Source of the DNA: an uncultured Eubacterium sp.
GTDB taxonomy: Bacteria > Bacillota > Clostridia > Oscillospirales > Acutalibacteraceae
Assembly: GCF_945980375.1 (NCBI RefSeq)
Contig: NZ_CAMFQO010000017.1
Coordinates: 1 to 39,699, forward strand
Direction: 5' to 3'
Length of the DNA stretch: 39,699 nucleotides
Shown piece after piece: positions 32,765 through 39,555 of the stretch. Made by a program: the position numbers and the translations under genes. Below the pieces are notes generated by a model. That model worked only from the letters and a program-made list of their open reading frames with translations, had not been told where the DNA came from and did no database searches. Numbering within the stretch: position 1 is the first letter of the stretch; the number at the start of each line of letters is the position of its first letter.

Positions 32765-33235
32765 CTACTTGTTCACGCTACCCGTAAACGGGTCTACAAA
32801 CTCTTTCAATTCTATTTGGTCTGCTATTTTATCTTCTGTCAATTGATTTCGTATGTACTCTTGTATTTGCTTTTTGTTGCGCCCCACTGTATCTACGAAA
32901 TATCCTCTTGCCCAAAAATGTCGATTCCCATACTTGTATTTTAAATTTGCGTGTCGGTCGAATATCATCAGGCTACTTTTTCCTTTTAGATATCCCATTA
33001 TTTGAGATACACTATATTTCGGCGGTATACTTATTAGCATATGTATATGGTCTTGACACAATTCGGCTTCTATTATCTCTATACCTTTTTGTTTGCATAA
33101 TTGTCTCAATATTTTTCCTATATCTACCTTGATTTCTCCGTAGATTGCCATTCTTCTGTACTTTGGTGCAAACACCACATGGTATTGACATCTCCACCTT
33201 GTATGGTCTAAACTATTTATGTCTTTCTCTTTCAC
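32765..33235 (-). CDS. tnpA: IS200/IS605 family transposase TnpA
   Basis: This 156-residue single-strand DNA transposase of the Y1 HUH superfamily has the histidine pair DHIHMLISIP (metal ligands), the N-terminal YHVVFAPKYRR typical of IS200 and the catalytic tyrosine, probably in GYFVDTVGRNKKQIQEYI near the C-terminus. It appears full length and unbroken. It starts with GTG at 33235, preceded by AAGGAGG. That site is partly buried in a leader hairpin (33248-33296). It is transcribed toward luxS. Confidence 0.96.
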   Translation of the reverse strand: MKEKDINSLDHTRWRCQYHVVFAPKYRRMAIYGEIKVDIGKILRQLCKQKGIEIIEAELCQDHIHMLISIPPKYSVSQIMGYLKGKSSLMIFDRHANLKYKYGNRHFWARGYFVDTVGRNKKQIQEYIRNQLTEDKIADQIELKEFVDPFTGSVNK

Positions 33236-34291: not shown

Positions 34292-34365
34292 AGAGGTATA
34301 GTGTAACGGTAACACTCCGGACTCTGACTCCGTCATTTAAGGTTCGAATCCTTATACCTCTGCCA
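34292..34365 (+). tRNA. tRNA-Gln (anticodon CUG)
   Basis: A complete 74-nt tRNA ending in an encoded CCA. Acceptor stem AGAGGTA (34292-34298) pairs with TACCTCT (34355-34361), with G as discriminator base. The D arm is GTGT/ACAC. The anticodon loop CTCTGAC has CTG at its centre, reading CAG (Gln). The T arm is TAAGG-TTCGAAT-CCTTA. The first anticodon-stem pair is a C-U mismatch (CCGGA with TCCGT). Its 3' part and following DNA are repeated at 39198, so it is the likely attachment site of the island to its right. A terminator hairpin follows. Confidence 0.95.
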
Positions 34366-34425
34366 AGAGTAAAACAGGTACCATTAGGTGCCTGTTTTCT
34401 TCTTCTGCGAAGAAGTAAGGATTCG
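34322..34425 (+). repeat. Left 104-bp direct repeat (tRNA-Gln 3' part plus hairpins), attL-like
   Basis: From the anticodon loop of tRNA-Gln through the 3' end, the terminator hairpin and a CTTCTTC-TGC-GAAGAAG hairpin. It matches 39198-39301 at 102 of 104 positions by eye. The two differences fall in the spacer after the tRNA and in the terminator stem. Such duplications of a tRNA 3' end are the classic trace of site-specific integration. Confidence 0.85.
34371..34398 (+). terminator. tRNA-Gln terminator
   Basis: AAAACAGGTACC (34371-34382) pairs with GGTGCCTGTTTT (34387-34398), with one U-G pair and a 4-base loop. It is followed by a pyrimidine-rich CTTCTT. It lies six bases after the CCA end. 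Confidence 0.75.
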
Positions 34426-34504
34426 AAGAATCGTTATTACGAGCAAGGCGAGTAACAAGGTTCTCGGGTACCTGTTCAAAATCTTTGATTTTGGTAACGG
34501 GTGA

Positions 34505-34523
34505 GGTTCTTATACCTCTGCCA
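34505..34523 (+). repeat. Second remnant of the tRNA-Gln 3' end
   Basis: GGTTCTTATACCTCTGCCA is the T loop-to-CCA part of tRNA-Gln with six bases of the T arm (GAATCC) missing. An identical 19-base copy occurs at 39362-39380, at the same place relative to the right-hand repeat. It lies directly before a strong terminator hairpin. Confidence 0.7.
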
Positions 34524-34559
34524 AAAAGAGCAAATCCGAACGGATTTGCTCTTTTTTTG
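34523..34559 (+). terminator. Strong terminator at the end of the tRNA-Gln region
   Basis: AGAGCAAATCCG (34527-34538) pairs perfectly with CGGATTTGCTCT (34541-34552), followed by seven T. It is the strongest terminator in the tRNA region and could catch read-through from the tRNA promoter. Confidence 0.85.
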
Positions 34560-34631
34560 TCCCAAAATTACCTAAAACAGCCCAAAATAGCCATATTTTT
34601 CGGCTTGTGAAAATATGATAAAATCTTTAGA

Positions 34632-34646
34632 GAGACACTTGAGAGA
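34632..34646 (+). repeat. 15-base motif, copy 1 (possible integrase arm site)
   Basis: GAGACACTTGAGAGA. One base differs from the two other copies at 34724 and 39128. All three lie on the plus strand beside the repeated tRNA ends. Confidence 0.6.
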
Positions 34647-34723
34647 TACCAAAAATTAGGCATAAATCTATTGATTTTGAAAATCGAAATGGTTATTTTT
34701 GGCAATTTACGGCAATAATCACA

Positions 34724-34738
34724 GAGACATTTGAGAGA
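34724..34738 (+). repeat. 15-base motif, copy 2 (possible integrase arm site)
   Basis: GAGACATTTGAGAGA, identical to copy 3 at 39128-39142. The match extends to 20 bases, TCACAGAGACATTTGAGAGA (34719-34738 and 39123-39142). Confidence 0.65.
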
Positions 34739-34771
34739 CAATCCTCTAATGTTCAAGTCAATTTAATACCC

Positions 34772-34841
34772 AGTGGTATAGTGTCGCGCTATCACACTGG
34801 ACTCTGTTTGTATGTGTTATAGTCCTTGCTTCGCTTCCACT
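34772..34841 (+). pseudogene. Degenerate tRNA-Gln-like sequence
   Basis: AGTGGTATAGTGT (34772 on) resembles the 5' part of the intact tRNA-Gln (AGAGGTATAGTGT). A D-arm-like GTGT/ACAC and GGACTCTG also match. The ends AGTGG and CCACT (34837-34841) can pair as an acceptor stem. The anticodon stem and T arm are not recognisable (no TTCRA T loop and no CCA), so it is probably a decayed or recombined second tRNA-Gln copy. Confidence 0.5.
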
Positions 34842-34870
34842 AAAAAAGAGCTGATTTTCAGCTCTTTTTT
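34842..34870 (+). terminator. Terminator within the left 130-bp repeat
   Basis: AAAAAAGAGCTGA (34842-34854) pairs with TCAGCTCTTTTTT (34858-34870) around a 3-base loop, with T-rich sequence after it. The right-hand repeat has the same hairpin with one change (39387-39411). Confidence 0.8.
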
Positions 34871-34974
34871 ATTTGTCTATAACGCAAAAGTCGGGTAGGA
34901 ATCATTCCGATTTTTACCCATAAAAATCTTTTTTGAAAATGGTATTAGGAATTTTGAGATTTATTCTTATTTTT
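34846..34974 (+). repeat. Left copy of a 130-bp direct repeat
   Basis: From the terminator hairpin on, the sequence (terminator, TCTATAACGCAAAAGTCGGG, GAAAATGGTATTAGGAATTT, TTTATTCTTATTTT) recurs at 39386-39514 with scattered substitutions and small indels. It is less well conserved than the 104-bp repeat, so the duplication is probably older. Confidence 0.8.
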
Positions 34975-35120
34975 CAGAAAAATCAGCCTTTCTTATTGTT
35001 ATAGTATAAATGATTAGACTAGGGGTAGCCTATTTTTTGAAAAAGATTTCTATTGTTTGCGTGGAATCTAATTCTCCCTATCGGCACATCAAATGCACCC
35101 TAAACTTTTACGAAACTGCC

Positions 35121-35166
35121 AAAAATAAAGACTCCTTTGCAGTATCATACAATACCACAAAGGAGT
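35121..35166 (-). terminator. Terminator of the 158-aa membrane protein gene
   Basis: On the minus strand ACTCCTTTG-TG-GTAT pairs with ATAC-TG-CAAAGGAGT (35166-35131), followed by CTTTATTTTT. It lies 36 bases past the stop codon at 35202. Confidence 0.8.
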
Positions 35167-35201
35167 TTTAATATCCAGACCTAATATTTTATTTCAATGC
35201 T

Positions 35202-35678
35202 TTACATATCAATGTTTTTATAAGTTTGAATCATTCCTTTTATACTCTTAATCGCTGCTTTATAGGCATCTCCGCTTCTTTTATCGTAAGTATCCTTGCT
35301 TATCTGTTCATAGGTCTTCTCGCCCTTAGGCTGATTGATATAATAGAAAACATTATATGAGCCGTCCTCCCAATCATCGTTGGCAGCATTGTATTGCTTA
35401 TAGCTTATCTCAACAGCAATTCCGTAAAAATTATATTTCTTTGAATCACCCTTGAATACACATTCAACATTCTTCTTCGCATTTTTATATGTTTCTCCAG
35501 AATAGCTGCCGTCAATCAGCATTTGTGCATCATTGCTGTACATTTTAACAAGGTCCTTGCTAATATCCGGACCTGAAGATTTTGCAGATGCAATGGAAAT
35601 GATTGCAATAATCCCTACTACAACTGCAAGAATTATTTTTGCCTTTTTGTTTTCCTTTAGTAAGTTTATGATTTTCAT
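35202..35678 (-). CDS. Small membrane-anchored protein of unknown function
   Basis: I do not recognise this 158-residue protein. It has a basic N-terminus (KIINLLKENKKAK), one membrane segment at about residues 16-33 (IILAVVVGIIAIISIA) and a soluble outer domain rich in Tyr, Lys, Asn and Asp (YGIAVEISYKQYNAANDDW). The ATG at 35678 has GGAGG six bases upstream; an earlier start at 35699 lies before that site. It is divergent from the truncated HTH regulator across 147 bases, as is common for a regulator and its target. Confidence 0.72.
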   Translation of the reverse strand: MKIINLLKENKKAKIILAVVVGIIAIISIASAKSSGPDISKDLVKMYSNDAQMLIDGSYSGETYKNAKKNVECVFKGDSKKYNFYGIAVEISYKQYNAANDDWEDGSYNVFYYINQPKGEKTYEQISKDTYDKRSGDAYKAAIKSIKGMIQTYKNIDM

Positions 35679-35795
35679 AATGTACCTCCAAAAATTCATT
35701 TAGGATTTTATCCTGATTTCATTATAGAGGCTTACTTGGACAGGAAATGTCTATCATAAAAATTTTTTAGAGGTACAGATTTTGTCCATCTTTTA

Positions 35796-35804
35796 TGCTA
35801 TAAT
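35796..35804 (+). promoter_or_regulatory. Extended -10 promoter of the truncated HTH regulator gene
   Basis: TG-C-TATAAT (35796-35804), 21 bases before the ATG at 35826. No good -35 hexamer at 17-base spacing is visible; TTGTCC at 35782 is too close. A minus-strand TATAAT (35726-35721) in the same interval may serve the 158-aa protein gene. Confidence 0.5.
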
Positions 35805-35825
35805 GAGGTTGAGGTGATAAATAAA

Positions 35826-36062
35826 ATGAACAATTATTTTGATTTTGGTACAAACAAAGGCTTTAGGCTTTTGAACATATATGAAAGGCTGAATAAGGGT
35901 GAGGAGGTTGTTAAGGAGAGTCTTGCAAACGAATTCGGCGTTTCAAACAAAACTATTCAGCGTGACATTGATGACCTGCGAGCATACATAGCCGAAACTC
36001 ATATTGATGAGCTTGATACATCAATCAGATATATCTTTTTTTCATATTATCAATCTCATTGA
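35826..36062 (+). pseudogene. Truncated HTH (DeoR/WYL-type) transcriptional regulator
   Basis: The first 60 or so residues form a DeoR-like winged helix-turn-helix of the kind that begins WYL-domain regulators (LLNIYERLNKGEEV, SLANEFGVSNKTIQRDIDDL). Such proteins are normally about 300 residues. Here the sequence breaks off near 36022, where it runs into the end of a minus-strand gene, leaving 78 codons with an unrelated tail (YIFFSYYQSH). GAGGTG lies upstream of the ATG. The DNA-binding part might still be made, but the sensor part is gone. Confidence 0.78.
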
Positions 36063-36261
36063 AATATTCATCAACATTAAATAATTGTGAACTTTTATTA
36101 ATCATTTTTCCCAAATTTATTTCTTTATCATTAAGATCAACATGTTCTGTAAAGCATATCGATTTTAATTTTTTTTGTTTTGCTATTTCGCAATGCTCAT
36201 TCATACTTGATTTTCCATCTGAAGAAAAAGTAGAATGAACATGCATATCAGAAAACCTCAT
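36025..36261 (-). pseudogene. Truncated PHP-domain (histidinol-phosphatase-like) protein
   Basis: This 78-residue fragment begins like a PHP metal-dependent phosphoesterase: MRFSDMHVHSTFSSDGKSSM with the H-x-H motif, then ICFTEHVDLN. The family is normally about 250-280 residues. The frame ends at 36025, exactly where the HTH fragment from the other strand begins, so the rest is lost. AAAGGA lies upstream of the ATG at 36261. It begins 43 bases after the radical SAM gene and would share its transcript. Confidence 0.75.
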
Positions 36262-36304
36262 AACACATTCCTTTCGGCATCTTTCAGATTTAACTTGATT
36301 TTTA

Positions 36305-37312
36305 TCACTCATTTCTATCAGACATAGAACGTTTCTTGTTATGATAACTAACAAGTTGCCCACAAGCTGCATTTATTTTGTTTCCACGCGATTCTCTAAT
36401 AGTAACATCCAACCCTTTTTCTTGTAATTTGTTTTTGAAAACAGTCAATTGTTGTTTGTTTGGACGTTGGATTCTACTACACTCAGTATCATTGTACTGC
36501 AATAGATTAATCATGACATTTTTATTTCTAAACCATTTAGCAAGTTGTCTAACATCATTCGGTTTATCATTTACTCCTGGAATTAACAGATACGCAATAG
36601 TGATTTTTCTATTATGTCTTTCCGAATAAGACAATGCTGCTTCAACAACCTCGTTAATGTCATTATTCTTCATATGAGGAATGATTTTGTCTCGAGTATT
36701 TTGGTTTGTAGCATGTAGTGATAAAGTGAATTGGATCTTTATGTGTTCTTCTCTAAGCTTTTTTAATTGAGCTAAGGGACCTACTGTGGAAATGGTGATA
36801 CCATCAGTTGGAAAGTTATATCCATTTCGATCCCTTAATATATGAATAGATTTTATTAGGTTATCATAATTCAACAATGGTTCTCCCATCCCCATAAAAA
36901 CTATTCTATTAACTCGTTCTTTTACTAATAGCACCTGTTGAACTATTTCAGATGCTGTTAAATTTCTCACAAATCCATTGCTACCTGATTCGCAAAAATA
37001 ACAACCCACAGGGCATCCCACCATAGTACTTACACATATAGTTGTTCCTGTCTTTCTTTTTATACATACAGTTTCAATACAATATCCATCATTTAATTTA
37101 AATGCATATTTTCTAGTGTCTCCACCGTTGAAAATATCAACTATTTTAATGGTTTTATAAGGTTTGAAATTTCTTGCACGATAAATCGATTTGTAAAACG
37201 AATTTGCCTTTTTTTCTCCAAGAATTGGTGAAATATCTTTTAATGTGTAGTTAAAAGGATCCTTGTAAATCATTTCCTCTGTTATTGGGTTTTCCTTTTT
37301 GAATTTTGGCAT
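36305..37312 (-). CDS. RlmN/Cfr-family radical SAM 23S rRNA methyltransferase
   Basis: This 335-residue enzyme is a divergent member of the RlmN/Cfr family, which methylates adenosine 2503 of 23S rRNA (C2 for RlmN, C8 for Cfr; the latter blocks several peptidyl-transferase antibiotics). The radical SAM cluster is C100-x3-C104-x2-C107 (GCPVGCYFCESG). Both mechanistic cysteines are present: C93 (TTICVST) and C317 (INAACGQL). FMGMGEPLLNY, ISTVGPLAQL and IPGVNDKPND are further family stretches. Whether it is RlmN- or Cfr-like cannot be decided by eye. Its AT-rich, plasmid-like setting beside an ABC-F gene favours a resistance role. Codon use is AT-rich, unlike the flanking chromosome. The ribosome-binding site is weak. 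Confidence 0.88.
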   Translation of the reverse strand: MPKFKKENPITEEMIYKDPFNYTLKDISPILGEKKANSFYKSIYRARNFKPYKTIKIVDIFNGGDTRKYAFKLNDGYCIETVCIKRKTGTTICVSTMVGCPVGCYFCESGSNGFVRNLTASEIVQQVLLVKERVNRIVFMGMGEPLLNYDNLIKSIHILRDRNGYNFPTDGITISTVGPLAQLKKLREEHIKIQFTLSLHATNQNTRDKIIPHMKNNDINEVVEAALSYSERHNRKITIAYLLIPGVNDKPNDVRQLAKWFRNKNVMINLLQYNDTECSRIQRPNKQQLTVFKNKLQEKGLDVTIRESRGNKINAACGQLVSYHNKKRSMSDRNE

Positions 37313-37350
37313 AATTATTTTCTCAACTCTCTTATTATACTAATATATTT

Positions 37351-37379
37351 ATAATAATGTAAGAATACATTGTTGTCAA
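37351..37379 (-). promoter_or_regulatory. Promoter of the radical SAM methyltransferase gene
   Basis: On the minus strand TTGACA (37379-37374) and TATTAT (37356-37351) are 17 bases apart, 38 bases before the start codon. Further AT-rich -10-like hexamers follow, for example TATAAT near 37337. Confidence 0.75.
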
Positions 37380-37409
37380 TAAATTCTTTTGAAATAAATT
37401 TTGATTTAC

Positions 37410-37438
37410 TTGATTATCTATTAGAAAAATGTTATGAT
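37410..37438 (+). promoter_or_regulatory. Promoter of the ABC-F gene
   Basis: TTGATT (37410-37415) and TATGAT (37433-37438) are 17 bases apart. The -10 overlaps an upstream in-frame ATG at 37434. The true start must therefore be the later ATG at 37476, leaving a leader of only about 30 bases, too short for an attenuator. Confidence 0.7.
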
Positions 37439-37475
37439 TACACAAAAGCACGAATTGTACGGAGTTGAAAAACAT

Positions 37476-38939
37476 ATGTCTGCTATTATTGTTGAAAATT
37501 TAACTTTCTCTTACCCTGGAAGTTACGATAATATTTTTGAAAACACAAGTTTTCAGTTGGATACCTCATGGAAATTGGGTTTAGTTGGGAGAAATGGAAG
37601 AGGCAAGACTACTCTTTGTAAATTACTTATGAATCAATACGAATATACAGGTAAAATTATTTGCAACGAGAAATTTGTTTATTTTCCGTGTAAAATCGAA
37701 AACAAAGAAAGGATGACCATCGAAATTCTACAAGAAGTTTGTCCAAGTGCAGAAGATTGGGAATTTATGAAAGAGATGTCATCTGTAGATTTGGATATAG
37801 AAATACTATATAAACCATTTGATATCTTATCAAATGGAGAGCAAACTAAAATACTTTTAGTGGCATTATTCATGAACGATCACCAATTTCTGTTAATAGA
37901 TGAACCTACCAATCATCTTGATGTTGAATCAAGAGAATTAGTTTCAAAATATCTTAAAAGCAAGAAGGGATATATTTTAATCTCTCATGATAGAATGTTT
38001 TTAGACGAATGTATAGATCACATTTTAACAATAAACAAATCGAGCATTGAAGTTTATTATTGCGATTTTTCAACATGGCTTGAAAATTTTGAAAACCAGC
38101 AAAAATCAGAGATGCTTCAAAATATTCGCATCAATAAGGATATAAAAAAACTTCAGGAAGCAGCAAGAAAGAATGCAGAGTGGTCAAACAAATCAGAAAA
38201 GGCAAAAAAAGGAGCAAAAGATAAAGGATTTGTAAGCCATAAGGCCACCAAATTAATGCAGAAATCAAAGAATCTTGAAACTCGACAAAATAGATCTATA
38301 GAAGAAAAGTCAAAACTTTTAAAAAACTATGAGTACGATCAAGATTTGAAGATATACCCTTTGGAATATCACTCAGAATTATTGGTTGAATATAAGGATG
38401 TATCTATGATTTATGATGATAATTTGATAAATTCACCGGTTTCATTCTCACTAAAAAAGGGGGATAGAGTTGTATTAAATGGAAAAAATGGAAGTGGGAA
38501 AAGCAGTTTAATTAAAGCACTTGTAAATGGAAATATACAACATCGTGGCGACATTTTTATTGCTTCAAATTTGATTATTTCCTATATACCACAAGATACA
38601 TCGTTTTTAACTGGGAGCTTAACAGATTATGCAGTTTCAAAAAAAATAGACGAATCTTTATTTAAAGCAATTTTACAGAAGATGGGCTTTACTAAAATTC
38701 ATTTCGAACGAAACATTGAAGAATATTCAGAAGGACAAAAGAAAAAGGTACTTGTTGCTGGGAGCTTATGTGAAAAGGCGCACATATACGTATGGGACGA
38801 ACCATTAAATTATATCGATATGTTTTCTCGAATACAGATAGAAAGATTAATTAATACATATCAACCTACGATGATTTTTATTGAACATGATAGATTATTT
38901 CAAAACACAGTTTCTACAAAAACGATAAATGTCGTTTGA
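37476..38939 (+). CDS. ABC-F ribosomal protection protein, Lsa-like
   Basis: This 487-residue protein has two ABC ATPase domains and no membrane segment, the ABC-F layout. Domain 1: Walker A GRNGRGKTT, signature LSNGEQTK, Walker B LLIDEPTNHLD. Domain 2: Walker A GKNGSGKSS, signature YSEGQKKK, Walker B VWDEPLNYID. The roughly 80-residue charged inter-domain linker is the part that reaches into the ribosome. LDTSWKLGLVGRNGRGKTT resembles the Lsa/Vga-like resistance group, which displaces lincosamides, streptogramin A and pleuromutilins. The drug spectrum here is inferred. GGAG lies 11 bases before the ATG. It is divergent from the radical SAM gene. Confidence 0.92.
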   Translation: MSAIIVENLTFSYPGSYDNIFENTSFQLDTSWKLGLVGRNGRGKTTLCKLLMNQYEYTGKIICNEKFVYFPCKIENKERMTIEILQEVCPSAEDWEFMKEMSSVDLDIEILYKPFDILSNGEQTKILLVALFMNDHQFLLIDEPTNHLDVESRELVSKYLKSKKGYILISHDRMFLDECIDHILTINKSSIEVYYCDFSTWLENFENQQKSEMLQNIRINKDIKKLQEAARKNAEWSNKSEKAKKGAKDKGFVSHKATKLMQKSKNLETRQNRSIEEKSKLLKNYEYDQDLKIYPLEYHSELLVEYKDVSMIYDDNLINSPVSFSLKKGDRVVLNGKNGSGKSSLIKALVNGNIQHRGDIFIASNLIISYIPQDTSFLTGSLTDYAVSKKIDESLFKAILQKMGFTKIHFERNIEEYSEGQKKKVLVAGSLCEKAHIYVWDEPLNYIDMFSRIQIERLINTYQPTMIFIEHDRLFQNTVSTKTINVV

Positions 38940-38953
38940 AGAGGTATATATTT

Positions 38954-39073
38954 ATGAAAAATTATTATAATTTTAATCTCACTAATGAACAAAAACAATA
39001 TGCTAAAGAGACCGATGATTTTTTATATGAATTAGATATATGCAAGTTAAGACATATACGATTTGCACTGTAA
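38954..39073 (+). CDS. Short frame after the ABC-F gene, probably a gene remnant
   Basis: A 39-codon frame with GAGG upstream begins 14 bases after the ABC-F stop codon. It reads MKNYYNFNLTNEQKQYAKET at the start. I do not recognise it. The good ribosome-binding site and the sudden end just before the repeat region suggest the 5' end of a longer gene cut off by recombination. Confidence 0.4.
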   Translation: MKNYYNFNLTNEQKQYAKETDDFLYELDICKLRHIRFAL

Positions 39074-39127
39074 TTCGTAGTATTAAAATCGAATATTTAG
39101 AGGCAAAAGATTCGAAAAAAATTCACA

Positions 39128-39142
39128 GAGACATTTGAGAGA
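39128..39142 (+). repeat. 15-base motif, copy 3 (possible integrase arm site)
   Basis: GAGACATTTGAGAGA, identical to copy 2 at 34724-34738. It lies 56 bases before the right-hand tRNA fragment. Confidence 0.65.
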
Positions 39143-39197
39143 TACGAGAGCCTTGAAACGTGCTTGAAATGGGCATTTTGTATGAAGCATTGTGTGG

Positions 39198-39301
39198 CTC
39201 TGACTCCGTCATTTAAGGTTCGAATCCTTATACCTCTGCCAAGAGGAAAACAGGCACCATTAGGTGCCTGTTTTCTTCTTCTGCGAAGAAGTAAGGATTC
39301 G
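39198..39301 (+). repeat. Right 104-bp direct repeat (tRNA-Gln 3' part plus hairpins), attR-like
   Basis: Matches 34322-34425 at 102 of 104 positions. The tRNA portion (39198-39241) runs from the anticodon loop to CCA and lacks the 5' half, so it is a non-functional tRNA fragment. The similarity to the left copy begins sharply at the anticodon loop (CTCTGACTCC). Confidence 0.85.
39247..39274 (+). terminator. Terminator hairpin in the right repeat
   Basis: AAAACAGGCACC (39247-39258) pairs perfectly with GGTGCCTGTTTT (39263-39274). It corresponds to the tRNA-Gln terminator at 34371, with the U-G pair replaced by C-G. Confidence 0.75.
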
Positions 39302-39361
39302 CAGAATCCTATTAGCCGAGGGTGTTAAGTGCCCGAACGCCAAGGTTCTGCACAAAGTGCA

Positions 39362-39380
39362 GGTTCTTATACCTCTGCCA
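39362..39380 (+). repeat. Right copy of the shortened tRNA-Gln 3' remnant
   Basis: GGTTCTTATACCTCTGCCA, identical to 34505-34523. It is preceded here by a CTGCAC-AAA-GTGCAG hairpin that the left copy lacks. Confidence 0.7.
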
Positions 39381-39385
39381 TAAAA

Positions 39386-39514
39386 TAAGAGTTGATTTTC
39401 AGCTCTTTTTTGTTTGTCTATAACGCAAAAGTCGGGTAGGAATTATTCCGATTTTTACCAAAAAATCCTTTTGAAAATGGTATTAGGAATTTTGAATTAG
39501 ATTTATTCTTATTT
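39386..39514 (+). repeat. Right copy of the 130-bp direct repeat
   Basis: Counterpart of 34846-34974. It includes a terminator hairpin (AAGAGTTGA, 39387-39395, with TCAGCTCTT, 39399-39407, then T run to 39411). In this copy the repeat follows the tRNA-3' remnant directly. In the left copy it follows the degenerate tRNA. Confidence 0.8.
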
Positions 39515-39555
39515 TGCACACTATTATCTCCTTTTCCTATATGGCAACGGAATTG

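What the first reader, a model, noticed from the sequence alone, without database searches (positions are those of the whole stretch)
34292..39514. 4.9-kb island bounded by repeated tRNA-Gln 3' ends, without its own integrase
The 3' part of tRNA-Gln plus its terminator recurs as a 104-bp direct repeat (102/104 identical by eye). A second direct repeat of about 130 bp lies outside it. The interval is AT-rich and carries ribosome-directed genes and truncated genes. This is the mark of tRNA-targeted integration. The target segment extends from the anticodon loop far past the gene, and no recombinase is present. It may be a trans-mobilised cassette of a type not well described.
Basis: partly seen in the sequence, partly recalled or inferred. 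Interest (0 to 1): 0.7.

Follow-up and report, generated by a model that had tools for sequence, protein, structure and literature searches.

The report
Integrase-less island at a tRNA-Gln gene
A 4.9-kb stretch of foreign DNA, carrying two genes that look ribosome-directed, sits in a glutamine tRNA gene of a bacterium with the landing marks of a phage-type integrase but no integrase of its own; passenger islands of this sort are already known.

Summary
A 111-bp direct repeat (108/111; 44/44 over its tRNA part) bounds the island, and it behaves as an attL/attR pair: matching arm-type motifs lie just inside both ends (34631, 34723; 39127), the right one 71 bp before the core. In fetched loci, mostly of same-genus genomes, 26 of 27 displaced tRNA-Gln 3' fragments have that motif at -72 to -69, against 0 of 21 cores with the tRNA 5' half. 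Joined flanks align without the island to a relative's tRNA-Gln locus. No recombinase or integrase remnant was found in the island, and its genome has no close relative of the integrases seen beside this site in relatives. Cargo: an Lsa-like ABC-F and an extra RlmN-family gene. The RlmN segment matches another species at 1,205/1,206 bp, while a housekeeping gene is 77% identical. Best reading: a CIME-like element (att sites kept, integration genes absent) in a genus-wide tRNA-Gln hotspot, where 9 of 15 core-to-core intervals lack an integrase. Mobilisation in trans is possible, not shown; the cognate integrase is unidentified. New member of a known kind.

The parts
34292..34365 (+). tRNA-Gln(CTG), intact; its 3' part from 34322 is the attL core (44 bp)
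   Evidence: ARAGORN; repeat
34366..34523 (+). post-tRNA leader with terminator hairpin (34366-34405) and a hairpin module ending in a tRNA 3'-end remnant (34504-34523)
   Evidence: sequence; fold -20.1 kcal/mol, z -7.0; same kind of module
34524..34560 (+). second terminator-like hairpin, at the element's own left end
   Evidence: fold -18.9 kcal/mol, z -6.4
34631..34646 (+). left arm-type motif 1 (1 mismatch)
34723..34738 (+). left arm-type motif 2 (exact), 92 bp after the first
   Evidence: spacing kept in six aligned left ends
34772..34841 (+). decayed second tRNA-Gln; intact in G073 and in one G028 copy
   Evidence: alignment; ARAGORN calls in relatives; not called in the window
34834..34976 (+). 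repeat B, inner copy, with terminator-like hairpin 34842-34870
35202..35699 (-). 165-aa protein of unknown function (sub-threshold DUF5406 match)
   Evidence: 18.8 bits against cut-off 25
35814..36062 (+). truncated HTH regulator
   Evidence: HTH_11
36025..36372 (-). truncated PHP-domain gene
   Evidence: PHP, first 54 of 164 profile positions
36305..37312 (-). accessory RlmN-family radical SAM methylase; segment 36196-37401 matches G028 at 1,205/1,206 bp
37434..38939 (+). Lsa-like ABC-F ribosomal protection-type gene
39127..39142 (+). right (attR) arm-type motif, exact, 71 bp before the core
39198..39308 (+). attR: displaced native tRNA-Gln 3' part (39198-39241) plus native leader/terminator
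39361..39380 (+). tRNA 3'-end remnant closing the native hairpin module
   Evidence: family D3
39375..39518 (+). repeat B, outer copy

Best explanation
The island is an integrated element that keeps both attachment sites but has no integrase of its own: CIME-like. A tyrosine-type integrase joined the element's attP to the anticodon-loop part of tRNA-Gln(CUG). The element supplied a replacement 3' end, so the tRNA stayed intact, and the displaced native 3' end now lies at 39198. Arm motifs inside both ends are where that integrase would bind. In this genome the element is probably stationary, since no close relative of the integrases that sit beside this site in related genomes was found. It could move if a compatible element arrives, by integrating next to it so that both leave together or by acting on its ends in trans. 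Its cargo is an Lsa-like ABC-F and an extra RlmN-family methylase, presumably protecting or modifying ribosomes. Shown: core and arm layout, absence of a detectable integrase, recent sharing of parts between species. Inferred: integrase type and binding, route of movement, drug phenotype.
For: 111-bp repeat with 44/44 core. Arm motif at -72..-69 before 26 of 27 partial cores (one is the window's own, from which the motif was taken), 0 of 21 cores with the tRNA 5' half, 16 of 40,000 random positions. Joined flanks align to the G005 tRNA-Gln locus at 238/282. About 380-aa tyrosine integrases near the same site in G025, G047, G054, G057, G078 (Pfam on one). No recombinase ORF or remnant in the island; own-genome integrases only 23-39% identical over parts. 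Recent transfer: 1,205/1,206 bp with G028 and 571/577 bp with G068 against 77% and 80% for a housekeeping gene. Low G+C.
Against: The cognate integrase is not identified: the window's family has two left arms 92 bp apart, unlike the integrase-bearing elements seen (mostly one detected left arm at +210 to +254, none detected in three), so those integrases may not act on it. One partial core (L050) lacks the arm. No same-species empty site was available. No ICE/IME gene remains in the island, so descent from one is unproven. The right flank may itself be a further element (contig ends at 39699).
Confidence: 0.78

Rival explanations
1. A never-autonomous family: elements with this left end (paired arms, own tRNA-Gln) have no integrase as a rule and spread with integrases supplied in trans by other elements.
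For: The left end occurs in 4 of 80 genus genomes. The three closed intervals of this family (window, two in G028) have no integrase ORF, nor remnants by tblastn (a weak 26-bit integrase piece lies at G028:C13:8204 in the open third interval). Left ends and cargo crossed species recently. Integrase-less intervals also stand in genomes that do hold integrases of this site, e.g. G054, G057, G078.
Against: Interior unknown in G068 and G073 (contigs end inside). No integrase with matching ends was found in the four carriers' tested genomes (G000, G028, G068 tested, G073 not), so no helper is in hand. Decay from a common integrase-less ancestor fits as well.
Confidence: 0.22
2. The att scars are old and the cargo came in separately, by homologous recombination or insertion sequences, into a dead remnant.
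For: The near-identical RlmN segment ends inside a truncated PHP gene and has different neighbours in G028, where an IS3-like transposase lies beside it. Truncated genes abut in the window.
Against: The left end itself is 571/577 identical to G068, so the end moved recently too; in all three genomes it lies at tRNA-Gln.
Confidence: 0.15
3. An ancient tandem tRNA-Gln array without site-specific integration.
For: Some relatives have two tRNA-Gln close together (G025, G033 by repeat search and G073).
Against: The right copy starts at the anticodon loop, lacks the 5' half and has the arm motif at -71, as 26 of 27 such fragments do.
Confidence: 0.03

Closest known systems
CIMEs (cis-mobilizable elements) of streptococci, e.g. 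at tRNA-Lys of S. agalactiae and at fda
   Same: attL/attR kept, recombination and conjugation genes absent, tandem accretion at one target gene; an Lsa-type gene, Lsa(F), was found on CIME45 and moved by cis mobilisation (passages of PMC5704250, PMC7563491, PMC13339394)
   Different: Other host group and target (tRNA-Gln); descent from an ICE/IME not shown; paired attL arms and an element-borne tRNA-Gln; no integrase-bearing partner seen in this genome
Islander-type tRNA genomic islands with anticodon-centred attP
   Same: tRNA rebuilt by the island, displaced 3' fragment at the far end (abstract and passages of PMC4383910)
   Different: Those carry an integrase by the search's rule; this one has none
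CALINs (integron cassette arrays without integrase)
   Same: Works like: cassette-type arrays that depend on an integrase from elsewhere (passages of PMC11389934)
   Different: No attC sites or integron; tRNA core and arm motifs instead
tRNA-dependent lysogeny of mycobacteriophages
   Different: Here the host tRNA is rebuilt by the 44-bp core, and the carried tRNA-Gln has decayed in the window

Membership tests
CIME | retained attL and attR | tested here: met
   44/44 core and arm motifs on both sides; recombination itself not tested
CIME | no recombination (integration) genes | tested here: met
   no tyrosine or serine recombinase ORF, no remnant
CIME | no conjugation/mobilisation genes | tested here: met
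   five island ORFs of 82 aa or more scanned, none matched a transfer family; smaller ORFs not scanned
CIME | derived by deletion from an ICE or IME | tested here: inconclusive
   no ICE/IME gene left in the island
CIME | moves by accretion with an incoming element | not testable with these tools
   tandem arrays exist in relatives, movement not observable
tyrosine-integrase tRNA island | displaced tRNA fragment plus rebuilt tRNA | tested here: met
tyrosine-integrase tRNA island | own integrase gene | tested here: not met
Lsa ABC-F | score above the curated Lsa cut-off | tested here: not met
   690.1 bits against 750; the broader ribosomal-protection ABC-F model is met, 457.4 against 380
RlmN (A2503 C2 methylase) | score above the curated RlmN cut-off | tested here: not met
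   287.7 bits against 290, a near miss
Cfr (A2503 C8 methylase) | score above a curated Cfr cut-off | tested here: not met
   183 to 189 bits against 468 to 550

The most novel reading that the evidence does not exclude
tRNA-Gln of this genus works as a cassette dock: elements made of an attL with arm sites, passenger genes and an attR, with no recombinase, accumulate in tandem and pass between species on integrases supplied in trans by other residents, much as integrase-less cassette arrays depend on an integron elsewhere. The window's family, with paired attL arms and its own tRNA-Gln, would be a lineage spread only in this way.
Probability: 0.22. Interest if true: 0.62.

Novelty: new member of a known kind. 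Interest (0 to 1): 0.4.

Why it matters
It maps an attachment system (core, arms, spacing) for a tRNA-Gln hotspot in the genus of Eubacterium coprostanoligenes and shows that att-flanked islands without an integrase are frequent there (9 of 15 closed intervals). The window's copy carries presumed ribosome-protection genes, one of them shared almost unchanged between species, so surveys that judge mobility by the presence of an integrase would miss it.

Tried and rejected
Cognate integrase in the own genome: 8 PF00589 matches; none closer than 23-39% over parts to the integrases seen at this site; no arm motif (<=2 mismatches) in the fetched stretches around 7 of the 8 (the one on C41 was not fetched). 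The only other arm seen in fetched own-genome stretches is at C51:820, beside what by eye looks like the end of an Abi-like gene; no recombinase by eye on C51.

Phage or plasmid source: the attR pattern gave 0 stretches in viral contigs; the integrase L046:3438-4580 has two relatives at 24% in viral contigs and only matches under 60% (best row about 28%) in plasmids. The phages collection was not searched.

Same-species empty site: none at hand (one genome per species); the G005 locus was used instead.

Continuation of the right flank: contig ends at 39699; the G028 Crp-type protein had no match in G000, so whether the right flank is chromosome or a further element is open. I first took repeat B as native flank; B-like sequence inside G068 and G028 left ends makes that uncertain.

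Ancient tandem tRNA array: disfavoured. Unusual target type: rejected.

Literature; no listed title was about tRNA-Gln integration in E. coprostanoligenes or its genus (in one search, 20 of 25 papers were listed). The library holds open-licence papers only. Opened: passages of PMC5704250, PMC7563491, PMC13339394, PMC11389934, PMC4383910; abstract and outline of PMC10865867. All other papers seen as listings only.

Rows left out of counts: L022 and L054 (repeats of the window and L031), cores less than 90 nt from a locus start, identical 130-nt contexts, and loci L136-L158 fetched by the arm pattern itself; L062-L121 and L132-L170 were not scanned either. One search had included L136-L158 (34 of 35). 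In one search, 17 intervals were given; 2 are open at one end and were not counted (one with a 20.6-bit integrase piece, one with none). The profile was built from 16 integrases, ORFs of 50 aa or more; serine recombinases were sought with one query. The counts mix elements and, in G029 (38 kb) and G005 (21 kb), perhaps chromosome.
Full report
Observation. The tRNA-Gln(CTG) gene at 34292-34365 is intact. Its 3' part from the anticodon loop, with the terminator behind it, recurs at 39198-39308: 111 nt, 3 mismatches, none in the 44 nt that belong to the tRNA. A second repeat (34834-34976 and 39375-39518) has one copy inside and one outside. The interval has G+C 0.314 against 0.432 before it and holds an unknown 165-aa gene, truncated HTH and PHP genes, an RlmN-family methylase and an Lsa-like ABC-F.

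The genus. The window is a whole contig (G000:C17) of a 1.77-Mb assembly. G005, of the same genus, has a contig of the same length (183,304) as NZ_FUWW01000001.1, Eubacterium coprostanoligenes ATCC 51222; I infer that it is this strain. In 60 genus genomes, 53 matched some part of a 1,016-bp query over the gene and its upstream side; several had a second match limited to about 45 bp, from the anticodon loop to the 3' end, kilobases downstream. In 80 genus genomes, 50 matched the core at E <= 1e-14, some at several places.

Attachment sites. Three copies of a motif near AGAGACATTTGAGAGA lie inside the island, 309 and 401 bp after the left core start and 71 bp before the right core. In fetched loci, 26 of 27 distinct partial cores have it (<=4 mismatches of 16) at -72 to -69; the exception is L050. 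None of 21 cores with the tRNA 5' half has it there; random positions give 16 of 40,000. Downstream copies are common too: where detected at integrase-bearing elements, mostly one at +210 to +254 (none in three such: L031 2053, L034, L049), and in the window's family a pair 92 bp apart. That these are integrase-binding arms is inferred.

Empty site. The sequence left of the island joined to that right of the displaced core aligns across the join to the G005 tRNA-Gln locus, 238/282. The post-tRNA leader is thus native there; it is also in the element's left end in the window and G028 but absent from the left end in G068, which explains why the repeat runs past the gene.

Integrases. About 380-aa tyrosine integrases lie near the site in G025, G047, G054, G057 and G078 (Pfam on one). 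Of 15 closed core-to-core intervals, 6 hold an integrase ORF and 9 do not, the window included; two of the nine, G029 (38 kb) and G005 (21 kb), may include ordinary chromosome. The island has no integrase remnant (best E 0.57; controls E 0). Integrases of the own genome match those of the site at only 23-39% over parts. A large serine recombinase lies beside a copy of repeat B in G073 and about 4 kb from tRNA-Gln in G013.

Recent movement. Window 36196-37401 matches G028:C13 at 1,205 of 1,206 bp, also beside tRNA-Gln. Window 34562-35138 matches G068 at 571 of 577 bp, at its tRNA-Gln. A housekeeping gene (IMP dehydrogenase by eye) is 77% identical in G028 and 80% in G068. G028 has two closed tandem elements of this family without integrase, and a fused right-end/left-end arm at about 25.46 kb. 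The left end was found in 4 of 80 genus genomes and in 0 of 397 other family genomes drawn (the other three carriers give no match there, so they were presumably not drawn). G068 and G073 are 85% and 78% complete assemblies and their contigs end inside the element.

Element-borne tRNA. Between the left arms and repeat B lies a second tRNA-Gln: intact in G073 and one G028 copy, decayed in the window, G068 and a second G028 copy, and partly deleted in a third. Its role is unknown; compare tRNA-dependent lysogeny (abstract and outline of PMC10865867).

Cargo. The ABC-F is 57.7% identical to plasmid Lsa(B) over 95%; best solved chain Lsa(A), 7nhk. It is under the curated Lsa cut-off and over the general one. 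The methylase is just under the RlmN cut-off and far under Cfr, nearer RlmN than Cfr among solved chains (185.8 against 159.2 bits); the genome has a second family member at 41%. Relatives at 60-66% sit on a Paraclostridium plasmid beside hflX and tetracycline-resistance genes, and near relaxase and large serine recombinase genes in two other records, one by annotation, one by eye. A drug phenotype is inferred only.

Class. An element with attL and attR but without recombination and conjugation genes is a CIME, moved by accretion (passages of PMC5704250 and PMC7563491). Att sites and missing genes were tested and met; descent from an ICE/IME was inconclusive; movement could not be tested. An Lsa-type gene on a CIME is on record (passages of PMC13339394). 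I file the island as CIME-like, a new member of a known kind, and keep the trans-mobilised family open at 0.22.

Noticed in passing
window 34405-34523 and 39281-39380; L025, L028, L033, L034, L036, L060, L130, L136 and others: A hairpin-rich module (AATCC/G...CGAG...CAAGGTTCT...AGGTTCTTATACC) follows tRNA-Gln in several species and in some copies sits inside the tRNA T-arm; 13 distinct regex hits in the fetched loci.
   Followed up: partly
L171:11607-11680; L023:2793-2866; window 34772-34841: Elements of the window's family carry a second tRNA-Gln near their left end, intact in two copies and decayed in the window.
   Followed up: partly
L179, L180, L181: Relatives (60-66%) of the accessory RlmN-like protein lie on plasmid records beside ribosome-directed resistance genes or mobilisation genes.
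   Followed up: partly
L025, L036, L038, L039, L040 downstream of tRNA-Gln: Neighbourhoods of tRNA-Gln in relatives hold defence-type genes: 8 of 10 proteins chosen by eye matched PADLOC models, among them Mrr-like, type II restriction-modification and Fic-like.
   Followed up: partly
L023:17380-17490 (G028:C13 about 25.4 kb): A right-end arm is fused to a left-end arm region, as if two neighbouring elements had recombined at the arm repeat.
   Followed up: partly
L172:10168-11397; L037:6233-7711: A large serine recombinase lies beside repeat B in G073 and near tRNA-Gln in G013, so a second kind of element may use this neighbourhood.
   Followed up: partly
window 32765-33235: A protein that by eye looks like an IS200/IS605-type transposase lies about 1 kb upstream of tRNA-Gln, next to a RadC-domain gene.
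   Followed up: no
G000:C51:809-888 (L170): A second piece of the element's left end (90% over 80 bp, with an exact arm motif) on another contig of the same genome, without a tRNA core beside it.
   Followed up: partly
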